DNA of 61,167 nucleotides from Richelia sp. CSU_2_1 (GTDB lineage: Bacteria; Cyanobacteriota; Cyanobacteriia; Cyanobacteriales; Microcoleaceae): the NCBI GenBank assembly GCA_012034575.1, contig JAAUPF010000016.1, positions 1 to 61,167 on the forward strand, read 5' to 3'. Position 1 is the first letter of the stretch. Every line of letters starts with the position of its first letter. The notes under the pieces were generated by a model. That model was not told where the DNA came from and did not search any database. It saw nothing but the letters and a program-made list of their open reading frames with translations. The translations under genes were made by a program, and so were the position numbers. Positions 35,472 to 40,834 of the stretch are shown one piece after another.

Positions 35472-38306
35472 ATGACGAAGGCATTACCGGGCAAAAAAGG
35501 CTGGTGGGATAATACTAAAGATTGGTTAAAATCGACCTTCATGCCAAGAAAATATCTCCAAGACCGTCAAGCTGAAACTGCTACCTCCGTTGCCACAATT
35601 AATTCACAAGCTGCCATTGAAAATGCCAACAAGCAAAGAGAATTGCAAGAAAAAATTACCATCGTCCAAAACTTGCAACATCAAGCCAGTCTTGAGGTGA
35701 CACGGGAACAAGGCGATTTAAACCGAGGCTTGCAGAAATACCTCGGCGAACTTAATATCGCATTTCAAGCTAATGAAGGCAAACTCAATCGCGAATTGCA
35801 GGACAAATTAGCTCAGTTAAATCGAGAATTTCAAGCTAATGAAGGCAAACTCAATCGCGAACACAGCGCTCAATTAGAAGTATTTCGCCAAGAATTTCAG
35901 ACATGGTGCATTGCCGAACAGCGCCAACTGCAATTAGAATTGAAACAGTTAGATGCTCTCCTTGCTAGAGAAATTGCTCTGGCAAATCGACAAACAGCAA
36001 TTGCCGCTCTTGTCAAGCAAAAAGACTTAGAAAATTCCCCGATTTTAGTTACCGCTGAAAATATTATTGCTAACATTCATCCCGACGATACGCCCGTATT
36101 GCGAGTGATTTTAGCACCGCCAGTATTGACTCGAGATCCCGCACAAAGCAGTCTCAATTTTCCAGTTTCTGAGGAATACTTGAGCAATTACCTGCGCAAC
36201 TTTATCGACAAGTATATCGCAACAGATCGTCCGGTGCAATTCCTCGGCGGTTCCTGGCGCAGCAACTTGTTTCGCGAAGAAGCAGCCGCCGAAAACTTAT
36301 TTGCAGGTTTGCGCGTCATTCCCACACTGATTTTAGATTCGTCAGCAACGCCGGATAACTTTTATTTGCGCTTTGGGTTTTGGCATATTAATTTCAAAAA
36401 ATATCGCTACAAAACTCCGATTAATGAGTTGCCTTGGGTTGAGGTACTGTACGATTTTGCCAAGCAGCGCGCCCGGAATTGGCAAGACAAACGGCAAGCG
36501 TACATTGATGCGGGCAAGCCTGTTGCTGATTTCGATATGCGCTACGGCGAGGAAACTGTAAAACGCTACCAGCAAAATTTGCGGATTGCTGAAATCGAAC
36601 GCATCGCTTTAGAAGAAGGAGAAGATTTAAGCGAAATTCACCGCCCCTACAATTTGCATAAAAATGATTACAGCGATTTGGCAGAATATATCGGGATTTG
36701 TCATGCTGTAATCGCAGGCTTAATTTTCGACGAATACTGCCTGATATTTTTACCTCCCGCCCAGCGCCAAACTCCTTTACTGCCGCAGTTACTCCCGGAT
36801 ATGTTGGCAAAACTTCCCGCAGGGGAACAGGAAGCTGTGGCGGAAATTGCTGTCAGTTACTATCAGGCAATATATGAGTATTTGGCTGGGGAAGAGTCGG
36901 CGTTGATTCCCGATTTGCGGTTGGATTTAGCTGAGTCTTTGTTGTGTTTGCCCGACAAGCAATGGGCTGCCGGACAAGTATCTTTGTCTGTCACCGATTG
37001 GTTGAAGTTGCGCGGTTTGCCAATTCCCGAATCGAATCAGTTATTAAATGCTTTGAGTGCGGCTGTGACTGTTGGCGATTTGCCCTACATAACCAAGTTA
37101 AATCAATGCTTGCAGCGTCTCGGTGCCAGCCGCCAAATAAATCTTGTTGAGTGTTGTTGGCAAAGGGGTTTGCAGCGGGAAAAAAATGGAGAATATTCGG
37201 CGGCAATTTCCGATTTTACTCAGGTTTTACAGTTAGACGGTTCTCGCTGGGATGCGAACTTTCAGCGGGGTTTGGCTTACTATCAAATTTGTGAGTATCG
37301 AGGCGCGATCGCAGATTTTGACCAAGTATTGCGGCTCAATCCGAATGAGGCAACTGTTTGTCACCATCGCGGGTTAGTTTATCAGAAATTGGGAGAGTTG
37401 GAACGGGCGATCGAAGATTTTAATCGCGCTTTGCAGATCGATCCAAATTTACCGGGCGTGTTGCATATTCGCGATGTGGCTTTGGGTATATTAGAGGAGA
37501 AAAAGCGGGAAGCGGAAGCAAAACGCCAGCGTCAAGCAGCAAAGGAAAGGGAACGCCAGCGCCAGCAAGCAGAAGCGGAACGTTTGCGCCGGGAGGAAGA
37601 AGCTAGCAAAGGGAAAGCATTTACCTTTGAAATCGTGACGGTGGATAAGTACGGGAAACAAACTAGCAAGCAGTCGGGGAAAGGTTATCAAAAAGAGGAA
37701 GATTTGGGCAATGGCGTGAAGCTGGAAATGGTGTACGTTCCTGCAGGTAGCTTTATAATGGGTGCGCCGTCGGGAGAAGAGAGTAATAGCTACGAACGCC
37801 CGCAGCATCCAGTAACTTTTGCCGAACCGTTTTATTTAGGGAAATATCCGATTACTCAAGAACAGTGGCAAGCGGTGATGGGCAATAATCCTTCAAGTTT
37901 TAAAGGTGCGAAACGGCCTGTAGAACAAGTAACTTGGAACGATGCTGTAAGTTTTTGTCAGAAGCTGTCGGAGAAAACAGGGAAAAACTATCGCTTGCCG
38001 AGTGAGGCCGAATGGGAATATGCTTGTCGGGCAGGTACGACAACAGCTTTTCACTTTGGAGAAACTATTACTCCCGATTTAGTTAATTATGATGGCAACA
38101 ATCCCTATGGTGCTGCGCCTAAAGGACTTTACCGTCAAGAAACTACTCCAGTGGGAAGTTTTCCCCCGAATGCATTTGGCTTGTACGATATGCACGGAAA
38201 TGTTTGGGAATGGTGTCAAGATTGCTGGCATAGTAACTACAATGGCGCACCTTCTGATGGAAGTGCTTGGGAAACAAGTGGATCTGATAACCGTGTGCCG
38301 CGTTGA
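35472..38306 (+). CDS. DGR target protein: coiled coil, TPR and FGE/SUMF1-type C-lectin fold, prematurely stopped
   Basis: 944 residues to the TGA at 38304. Order: coiled coil with internal repeats (about 35-190, FQANEGKLNRE twice), an unrecognised globular part (about 200-555), TPRs (558-665), a Lys/Glu/Arg-rich helix (675-715), then an FGE-sulfatase/SUMF1 domain from about 745 (YVPAGSFIMGAP, RPVEQVTWNDAVSFCQKLS, YRLPSEAEWEYACRAGTTT, NAFGLYDMHGNVWEWCQD). The domain should finish with R-V-x-R-G-G-S-W-N. That motif is cut by TGA where the template repeat has GGA; past the stop the same frame reads 51 more codons (GSWNYYAVHCRAALRN...) to TAG at 38460. The C-terminal variable residues are those a DGR diversifies. 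Likely a ligand-binding display or sensor protein. Confidence 0.85.
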   Translation: MTKALPGKKGWWDNTKDWLKSTFMPRKYLQDRQAETATSVATINSQAAIENANKQRELQEKITIVQNLQHQASLEVTREQGDLNRGLQKYLGELNIAFQANEGKLNRELQDKLAQLNREFQANEGKLNREHSAQLEVFRQEFQTWCIAEQRQLQLELKQLDALLAREIALANRQTAIAALVKQKDLENSPILVTAENIIANIHPDDTPVLRVILAPPVLTRDPAQSSLNFPVSEEYLSNYLRNFIDKYIATDRPVQFLGGSWRSNLFREEAAAENLFAGLRVIPTLILDSSATPDNFYLRFGFWHINFKKYRYKTPINELPWVEVLYDFAKQRARNWQDKRQAYIDAGKPVADFDMRYGEETVKRYQQNLRIAEIERIALEEGEDLSEIHRPYNLHKNDYSDLAEYIGICHAVIAGLIFDEYCLIFLPPAQRQTPLLPQLLPDMLAKLPAGEQEAVAEIAVSYYQAIYEYLAGEESALIPDLRLDLAESLLCLPDKQWAAGQVSLSVTDWLKLRGLPIPESNQLLNALSAAVTVGDLPYITKLNQCLQRLGASRQINLVECCWQRGLQREKNGEYSAAISDFTQVLQLDGSRWDANFQRGLAYYQICEYRGAIADFDQVLRLNPNEATVCHHRGLVYQKLGELERAIEDFNRALQIDPNLPGVLHIRDVALGILEEKKREAEAKRQRQAAKERERQRQQAEAERLRREEEASKGKAFTFEIVTVDKYGKQTSKQSGKGYQKEEDLGNGVKLEMVYVPAGSFIMGAPSGEESNSYERPQHPVTFAEPFYLGKYPITQEQWQAVMGNNPSSFKGAKRPVEQVTWNDAVSFCQKLSEKTGKNYRLPSEAEWEYACRAGTTTAFHFGETITPDLVNYDGNNPYGAAPKGLYRQETTPVGSFPPNAFGLYDMHGNVWEWCQDCWHSNYNGAPSDGSAWETSGSDNRVPR

Positions 38307-38442
38307 GGTTCGTGGAACTACTACGCGGTCCATTGCCGTGCTGCCCTCCGCAACACCTACTCTGCGGGCAGCTCGTACTGGCGCTGGGGTTTTCGCGTTG
38401 CTGCCGTGCTGCAGCTTCCTGCTTCCCCGTCTTCCCTGCGAG
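38291..38442 (+). other. DGR variable region (VR)
   Basis: 152 bp matching the template repeat at 39107 (offset 816). Fifteen template A positions differ: 38294, 38299, 38319, 38322, 38331, 38346, 38347, 38356, 38358, 38371, 38376, 38379, 38382, 38383 and 38385 (8 to T, 5 to C, 2 to G). Only one other base differs, 38304 (G to T, giving the TGA). From 38386 to 38442 the 57 bases are identical and contain just two adenines, as expected of the fixed initiation (IMH-like) end. Similarity fades after 38449. Confidence 0.95.
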
Positions 38443-39769: not shown

Positions 39770-39787
39770 CAAGATTTATGATAATAC

Positions 39788-40834
39788 ATGAAAAGATACG
39801 ACAATCTTTGGTCTGAAATCATCAGTTTCGAGAACTTATTAGTTGCAGCACGAAAAGCTCAAAAAGGCAAGCGTTTTCGTCACAATATTTTAGCCTTTAA
39901 CTACAACCTAGAAAGCGAACTTTTCCAACTGCAAACAGAATTAGCAGCCAAAACCTATATTCCCGGAAATTATAGAACCTTTGAAATTGTCGAACCCAAA
40001 CGGCGGATGATTTCTGCTGCACCATATCGAGATAGAGTAGTCCATCACGCTCTTTGCAACATTATTGTACCGCTGTTCGATCGAACTTTTATTGCTGATT
40101 CCTACGCCAATCGAGTTGGTTTTGGCACTCACCGGGCTTTGCGTCGCTTCACAGAGTTTGCCCGTTCTAGCCGTTACGTTTTACAATGCGATATTAAGAA
40201 ATATTTTCCCAGTATTGACCGTGAGATTTTAAAAGCCTTAGTGCGCCGGAAATTAAAATGTCCCGATACCCTTTGGCTGGTTGATAAAATAATCGACAAT
40301 AGCAACGCACAAGAACTTGTCATCGAACATTTTCCGGGAGACGATTTGCTAACTCCAGTGAATCGCAAGCGCGGTTTGCCAATTGGCAATTTAACCAGCC
40401 AATTTTATGCCAATATTTATTTAAATGGCTTCGACCATTATATCAAAGAACGGGTAAAAGTCAAAAAATATATACGTTATGTAGATGATTTTGCTTTGTT
40501 TGCGGACGATCGAGCATTTTTAGCAGATGCGAGGTTGGCGGTTGAGGAATATTTGGCAAGTTTGAGGTTAAAGATTCATCCGATTAAAAGCCAATTATTT
40601 GAAACAAAAGAAGGTGCAAATTTTCTAGGTTTTCGAGTATTTCCCGATCGAATTCGAGTGAGGACAGAAAACTTGCGACGCGGAAGGCGACGGCTGCGAA
40701 AAATGCAGATTGAATGCAGTCAGGGAAAAATTAGCTTATCCAAAATCATCCAGTCAATGCAAAGTTGGCAAGCCCACTTAAAGCACGGCAATACTTGGCA
40801 ATTAAGAAAACAGATATTTGTATCAGTGGAATGA
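39788..40834 (+). CDS. DGR reverse transcriptase
   Basis: 348-residue group-II-like RT of the DGR clade. Motifs: ILAFNYNLESELFQLQ (RT0-like), QCDIKKYFPSID with the first catalytic Asp, RGLPIGNLTSQFYANIYLN (DGR-type IGN-L-T-S-Q in place of the retroviral/intron sequence), YIRYVDDFALFADD with the YVDD catalytic pair, and GANFLGFRVFP. A basic thumb follows (ENLRRGRRRLRKMQ). No maturase or endonuclease domain. It would copy TR RNA with frequent errors at adenines and deliver the cDNA to VR. Expression signals are weak; it is probably translated from the same transcript as avd. Confidence 0.96.
   Translation: MKRYDNLWSEIISFENLLVAARKAQKGKRFRHNILAFNYNLESELFQLQTELAAKTYIPGNYRTFEIVEPKRRMISAAPYRDRVVHHALCNIIVPLFDRTFIADSYANRVGFGTHRALRRFTEFARSSRYVLQCDIKKYFPSIDREILKALVRRKLKCPDTLWLVDKIIDNSNAQELVIEHFPGDDLLTPVNRKRGLPIGNLTSQFYANIYLNGFDHYIKERVKVKKYIRYVDDFALFADDRAFLADARLAVEEYLASLRLKIHPIKSQLFETKEGANFLGFRVFPDRIRVRTENLRRGRRRLRKMQIECSQGKISLSKIIQSMQSWQAHLKHGNTWQLRKQIFVSVE

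What the first reader, a model, noticed from the sequence alone, without database searches (positions are those of the whole stretch)
38291..40834. Complete diversity-generating retroelement with adenine-specific VR/TR differences
VR (38291-38442) and TR (39107-39266) align without gaps. Over the first 95 bases, 15 of 27 template adenines differ in VR and only 1 of 68 other bases does. Asn AAC codons of TR become Tyr (four times), His, Leu, Thr, Ser and Arg; two AGG codons become TGG. Avd and an IGN-L-T-S-Q-type reverse transcriptase follow on the same strand. This is the DGR signature, seen directly.
Basis: partly seen in the sequence, partly recalled or inferred. Interest (0 to 1): 0.95.

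Follow-up and report, generated by a model that had tools for sequence, protein, structure and literature searches.

The report
Gene-rewriting element with a stopped target
A cyanobacterium, likely a Microcoleus, carries all the known parts of a diversity-generating retroelement, a known kind of gene-rewriting system that has likely scrambled the end of one predicted sensor gene; in this assembly that gene is cut short by a stop codon which the element's own intact template copy would be predicted to overwrite.

Summary
Avd and a DGR-type reverse transcriptase follow: a real diversity-generating retroelement. Of 46 TR/VR pairs found beside related reverse transcriptases, only the window's VR has a stop that TR lacks. 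The stop may be real or an assembly error; chance suffices to explain it. TR cannot make stops by adenine change and is open there, so another homing round should overwrite it. Behind TR lies a strongly covarying RNA, a sub-threshold match to Rfam RT-14, whose first helix pairs the TR end. TR stands before avd; in 29 of 36 loci it stands behind RT. TR and VR share 15 of 15 lineage-specific bases here, and likewise in a sister genome. That genome and ten other congeners keep clean VRs with no detectable DGR reverse transcriptase. Known kind, instructive state.

The parts
35472..38306 (+). target gene as read here: 944 aa, long N-terminal helices, TPR repeats, FGE-sulfatase domain, ending at TGA 38304-38306
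   Evidence: Pfam PF03781 covers profile 4-216 of 255 in the truncated ORF and 4-254 with the frame read on past the stop as X
38307..38462 (+). rest of the FGE domain in the same frame, beyond the TGA, to TAG 38460-38462
38291..38450 (+). variable repeat (VR); changed adenine sites lie from 38294 to 38385
38440..38450 (+). IMH end of VR, GAGGACTCTTC, one base different from the TR end (G 38443 for C 39259)
38500..38525 (+). short inverted repeat followed by a T-run behind the target (terminator-like, seen by eye, no scan run)
   Evidence: sequence
39060..39090 (+). leader hairpin before TR (loop GCAA), likely relic of a reverse-transcriptase gene end
   Evidence: -14.8 kcal/mol for 39060-39106
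39107..39266 (+). template repeat (TR); its last bases 39260-39266 (IMH*) are the first strand of helix 1
39259..39403 (+). structured TR-end RNA, RT-14-like; 39307-39313 pairs with 39260-39266
   Evidence: (45.7 bits, cut-off 48.1)
39419..39769 (+). avd, 116 aa
   Evidence: PF22296 bAvd 63.6 bits (cut-off 40)
39788..40834 (+). DGR reverse transcriptase, 348 aa, IGNLTSQ and YVDD
   Evidence: PF00078; best PDB sequence match 8ub7, 5.6e-49

Best explanation
Window 38291-40834 holds a diversity-generating retroelement (VR, TR, a TR-end RNA predicted to fold, avd, reverse transcriptase) that has likely rewritten the 3' end of the TPR-FGE gene at 35472-38462, while in this assembly that gene is closed by a TGA at the fifth VR codon, which one more round of copying from the intact TR would be predicted to overwrite. 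Likely mechanism, by analogy with the studied BPP-1 element: a TR RNA folds so that the TR end (IMH*) pairs with the following spacer; the RT-Avd complex primes there, copies TR with random bases opposite adenines, and the cDNA replaces VR up to the IMH boundary. Shown here: the TR/VR pattern, the covarying RNA pairing, concerted TR/VR change, the stop. Inferred: transcription, cDNA synthesis, homing, ligand sensing by the FGE domain, overwriting of the stop.
For: A-specific differences. TR against the TR of congener G007: at 15 of 15 non-A sites where the two TRs differ, each VR follows its own TR, 0 of 15 crosswise, so TR and VR have exchanged sequence since the split. In 46 TR/VR pairs (window included) from 36 of 51 loci scanned, 735 of 1465 template A and 27 of 4172 other bases differ (the finder itself required A-rich mismatches). 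RNA: 26 pairs, 20 with two-sided changes, 95.2% of cells paired against 80.2% in shuffles and at most 45.5% when slid. No TR codon can become a stop by changing adenines. Changed adenine sites at 38294 and 38299 lie on the far side of the TGA, so earlier copying reached past it. In E. coli a rebuilt BPP-1 DGR restored a truncated reporter gene from its TR (PMC12875486, introduction and passages seen).
Against: No reads, transcripts or population data, so current activity is unknown. The target is closed in this assembly. The RNA match to RT-14 is below the family's cut-off, and 9 relatives' loci showed no RT-14 at the cut-off. The RNA shuffles do not remove shared ancestry.
Confidence: 0.88

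Rival explanations
1. The TGA is real and the element is decaying: the target became a pseudogene and writer parts are lost one after another, as in other Microcoleus genomes.
For: G007 keeps VR and TR but no avd/RT; G015 has avd/RT but its only TR-position copy is a VR joined to the spacer, and its target match has a TAG and a TAA inside; G009's RT is cut at residue 156. A random non-A substitution in VR makes a stop in 21 of 387 cases, so about 1.5 stops are expected among the 27 non-A differences of the 46 pairs and 1 is seen.
Against: avd, RT, TR, spacer and IMH all look intact in the window, and only 1 non-A change besides the boundary base has gathered in 160 bases of VR.
Confidence: 0.35
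2. The TGA is a sequencing or assembly error and the target is intact.
For: The assembly is a 370-contig draft, 86% complete, 6.6% contaminated. The solute-binding gene at 31051-32381 has its first 37 or so codons in another frame than the rest, against an open gene in three congeners. 29 of 29 congeneric VR tracts read are open at this codon.
Against: One clean substitution, not an indel; no reads to test it. The one identical protein in the database search is a 743-aa piece that ends before VR, so it cannot decide.
Confidence: 0.3
3. VR and TR are ordinary duplicates and the adenine bias is chance or mutation bias.
For: None found.
Against: p = 4e-9; the same bias in 45 other pairs (the finder selects for it).
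Confidence: 0.01
4. The stop is a used OFF state: the cell silences a costly sensor and homing turns it on with a new tip.
For: The stop lies inside the rewritable tract and TR is open there.
Against: The only such stop in 46 pairs and 29 congeneric tracts; its frequency fits chance.
Confidence: 0.08

Closest known systems
Cyanobacterial DGRs, clade 5 / 5E (Vallota-Eastman 2020 PMC7517822; Dore 2024 PMC10907252)
   Same: avd and RT of the same kind, TR/VR with A-specific change, C-terminal CLec/FGE target, cyanobacterial host, remote VR paralogues
   Different: TR lies before avd; in 29 of 36 loci with a pair it lies behind RT, in 24 of those 29 at most 30 nt behind the RT stop. Target closed by a TGA. 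No MoxR or full vWA match among the ten neighbour proteins scanned
BPP-1 DGR, mechanism as told in PMC12875486
   Same: TR RNA with structured spacer, Avd, RT, IMH/IMH*
   Different: order of parts; cyanobacterial contig; FGE-type target
Rfam RF02921 RT-14 RNA
   Same: full-length match 39259-39403 directly behind TR, also in L040 and L039
   Different: 45.7, 46.0 and 41.4 bits, all below the cut-off of 48.1
Treponema denticola isolates with VR genes but no TR/RT (PMC4891356, passages seen)
   Same: target genes present without the writer; some targets truncated
   Different: different phylum and host biology; no comparison of sequences made here

Membership tests
Diversity-generating retroelement | near-identical TR/VR pair differing mainly at template adenines | tested here: met
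   15 of 27 A, 1 of 68 others
Diversity-generating retroelement | DGR-type RT with (I/V/L)GxxxSQ motif | tested here: met
   IGNLTSQ; motif as defined in PMC3521204 section 8
Diversity-generating retroelement | accessory protein Avd | tested here: met
   PF22296
Diversity-generating retroelement | VR at the 3' end of an open target gene with CLec-type fold | tested here: inconclusive
   FGE domain present (profile match to T. denticola variable protein 2y3c, the profile holding homologues' C-termini) but the frame is closed by TGA in VR
Diversity-generating retroelement | adenine-specific mutagenic homing in living cells | not testable with these tools
   no reads
Cyanobacterial DGR-RT clade (5E) | RT falls within the clade | tested here: inconclusive
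   lies among cyanobacterial and Thiotrichaceae RTs in an unresolved fork; no clade-5 reference set was used
RT-14 RNA (RF02921) | score at or over the curated cut-off | tested here: not met
   45.7 against 48.1 bits, E 3.1e-5, model 1-144 of 144; so a likely relative, not filed as a member
VMAP ternary conflict system | adjacent MoxR ATPase, vWA and VMAP genes | tested here: not met
   ten neighbour proteins between 28081 and 47095 scanned with Pfam; none MoxR; one sub-cut-off VWA7_4 match (20.4 against 27 bits) inside a pentapeptide-repeat protein; farther genes not scanned

The most novel reading that the evidence does not exclude
The Microcoleus DGR is a come-and-go writer for a standing set of VR-tagged sensor genes: TR, its RT-14-like pairing RNA and the leader hairpin form one RNA cassette that has moved from behind RT to before avd; many genomes keep VRs after losing the writer, and where the writer stays, as here, it can reopen a sensor closed by a stop codon while giving it a new tip.
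Probability: 0.2. Interest if true: 0.75.

Novelty: new member of a known kind. Interest (0 to 1): 0.5.

Why it matters
It offers a natural, checkable case of a DGR whose template still holds the open version of a codon that is closed in its target, so whether homing restores broken targets in nature becomes a simple amplicon question. The strong covariation gives a concrete RNA model for the TR end in this group of DGRs and suggests a function for an RNA family named only for its nearness to RT genes (the naming is recalled). VRs without a writer make the non-adenine mismatches usable as a clock of last rewriting.

Tried and rejected
Remote second target in the same genome: of the window's own genome only G000:C286 (71%) resembles TR over most of its length, but 28 of 118 non-A bases differ as well as 14 of 28 A, so it is not a recent product of this TR. 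Rejected as current target, kept as an old one. A third, shorter match (C13:62875-62922, 48 bases) is in another FGE gene.

Second writer in the same genome: PF00078 gave two matches; no TR- or VR-like match lies in 7 kb around the other one on C13.

Function of the N-terminal part: AlphaFold2 model of the 944-aa ORF (mean pLDDT 75, pTM 0.58); the 50 PDB matches listed look TPR-type (judged by their titles); no effector named.

RT tree: the window RT is not joined with support to the other Microcoleus RTs, so a single relocation of TR in the genus is not shown.

Distant RTs in the writer-less genomes: the five open frames of 310-436 aa looked at (G004, G023, G003, G026, G012) carry QGxxxSP, not the DGR motif; the other matches were judged by identity (24-32%) alone.

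Literature: in the listings of searches I saw no title or abstract on a natural stop codon inside a VR that the TR lacks, nor on RT-14 as a DGR RNA; only six papers were opened. The 2017 paper that likely defined RT-14 (recalled) is not held, so that link may be in print.
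Full report
OBSERVATION. VR 38291-38450 and TR 39107-39266 align without gaps at offset 816. In 38291-38385, 15 of 27 template adenines differ (8 T, 5 C, 2 G) and 1 of 68 other bases; over 38287-38450 Fisher p is 4e-9. avd (39419-39769, bAvd, 63.6 bits) and RT (39788-40834, RVT_1) follow. The RT shows IGNLTSQ and YVDD; its best solved relative by sequence is the 9-entry set 8ub7 (5.6e-49; I recall, from no call, that this is the BPP-1 RT).

The one non-adenine change turns the codon at 38304-38306 into TGA in the target frame. The ORF 35472-38306 (944 aa, TPR plus FGE-sulfatase) thus ends at the fifth VR codon; the frame beyond it runs on with a normal FGE end to TAG 38460-38462. 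Pfam coverage of the FGE profile is 4-216 of 255 without and 4-254 with that end. In TR's frame no codon can become a stop by changing adenines, and 21 of 387 single non-A changes in VR would make a stop. Adenine sites 38294 and 38299, on the far side of the stop, are changed, so copying has reached past it at some time.

IS THE STOP UNUSUAL? Of 51 loci scanned (50 relatives of the RT plus the window), 36 gave 46 TR/VR pairs; 735 of 1465 template A and 27 of 4172 other bases differ (the finder demanded at least 6 A changes and four times as many A as other changes, so clean pairs are favoured). A first script flagged five VRs as stopped; for one (L023) it had chosen a wrong frame. Read in the Asn-richest TR frame, only the window of 46 pairs has a stop in VR that TR lacks; 10 pairs share a stop with TR, near the 3' end in nine, early in L020, where both are shifted. 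L023's target frame is closed 45 nt before VR, so broken targets occur elsewhere, outside VR. In congeners, 29 of 29 VR tracts read are open to a stop at +124 or later. With 27 non-A changes about 1.5 stops are expected by chance, so one stop needs no special cause.

RECENT COPYING. A congener (G007, locus L096) has the same gene neighbourhood with an open VR and a TR, but no avd or RT behind it. Where the two TRs differ at non-A bases (15 sites), the window's VR follows the window's TR 15 of 15 and G007's VR follows G007's TR 15 of 15; 0 of 15 crosswise. Aligned neighbour stretches of these two genomes are 78-86% identical, the target gene 81%. TR and VR have thus exchanged sequence since the split; TR to VR is the known direction, the data alone do not give it.

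THE TR RNA. Behind TR lies a conserved element. On 35 aligned sequences RNAalifold gives 26 pairs, 20 with two-sided changes; a count gives 95.2% of cells paired, shuffles 80.2%, slid versions at most 45.5%, covariation score 0.604 against 0.301, 0 of 500 shuffles as high (shuffles ignore relatedness). With 33 longer sequences there are 38 pairs, 31 with two-sided changes; three loci without the anchor motif (L036, L047, L021) were left out of both, L011 and L046 of the second. Helix 1 pairs the TR end (39260-39266) with 39307-39313. Rfam RT-14 (RF02921) matches 39259-39403 over its full length at 45.7 bits, cut-off 48.1, E 3.1e-5; also L040 (46.0) and L039 (41.4) of six loci tried; no RT-14 at the cut-off in nine loci nor in the window. 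In 22 of 40 pairs printed the first TR/VR difference lies one base before helix 1 (some other rows are in a wrong register). In the window that base is C 39259 / G 38443.

ORDER OF PARTS. In 29 of 36 loci with a pair TR lies behind RT, in 7 (window, L045, L046, L047, L056, L057, L058) before it. In 24 of the 29 TR starts at most 30 nt after the RT stop, and the RT end there often reads like IFASLVFTRG with a hairpin in its codons; the window's RT ends IFVSVE while a hairpin (39060-39090) stands before its TR. Inference: the TR cassette moved from behind RT to before avd. G008 has the same order as the window.

VRs WITHOUT A WRITER. TR plus spacer was searched in 29 genomes of the genus: 22 match; only G000, G007, G008 and G015 match through the spacer. 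5 of 29 have the RT at E up to 1e-60. Of 41 hits, 5 are TR/VR of G000, G007, G008; of the other 36, 31 were compared and 5 short ones (48-64 nt) were not. 15 tracts in 11 genomes differ from the G007 or G008 TR at 5 or fewer of 71 non-A core sites; 10 of these 11 genomes (all but G015), and G007 itself, show no DGR-type RT, best matches 24-32% identical, the five checked by motif being of the QGxxxSP type. 16 of the 31 tracts differ from both TRs at 6 or more non-A core sites, so they are older or were written by another TR. G004, G016 and G020 share nearly one VR variant, so some VRs look frozen since before species split. Drafts may lack a plasmid-borne writer.

KNOWN. Dore 2024 (abstract, section 6, part 1 of section 11, passages) places cyanobacterial DGR RTs in clade 5E and proposes antigen sensors; Vallota-Eastman 2020 (abstract, sections 5-7) describes remote targets, a VR remnant without a nearby RT and a degraded DGR; DiGReF 2012 (PMC3521204, section 8, passages) describes inactivated DGRs, order variants and warns of sequencing errors; PMC4891356 (passages) lists T. 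denticola isolates with VR genes and no TR/RT; PMC8144416 (passages) speaks of active and inactive DGRs. So the kind is known. New here, as far as these papers go, is the particular state: an otherwise whole element with a target closed inside the rewritable tract, the RNA model for this group, and the many writer-less VRs of one genus.

LIMITS. One assembly, no reads. Homing, sensing and reopening are inferred.

Noticed in passing
window 31051-32381 (-): Solute-binding protein gene: its first 37 or so codons lie in another frame than the rest, while three congeners have it open; bears on assembly quality.
   Followed up: partly
   Followed up: partly
L020 TR 9075-9203, VR 7353-7481: TR and VR carry the same shifted frame that closes the target early: a damaged template apparently passed on to its target.
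   Followed up: partly
L023 VR 174-302: The target frame is closed 45 nt before VR although VR itself is open.
   Followed up: no
L106 6644-7170 (G009): RT breaks off at residue 156 and runs into a spacer-like sequence (seen by eye).
   Followed up: no
L096 6302-7092: G007 keeps VR, TR and spacer, but small unrelated frames stand where avd and RT would be.
   Followed up: partly
L007 6841-6986 (G000:C286): FGE gene with an old VR-like end; its tail resembles the window TR tail (39 of 49) more than the G007 TR does (33 of 49).
   Followed up: partly
G004:C215, G016:C27, G020:C267: Nearly the same VR variant in three genomes: a VR apparently frozen since their split.
   Followed up: no
L022 RT 8001-9029: RT of a relative has one in-frame stop beside A-specific TR/VR pairs.
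   Followed up: no
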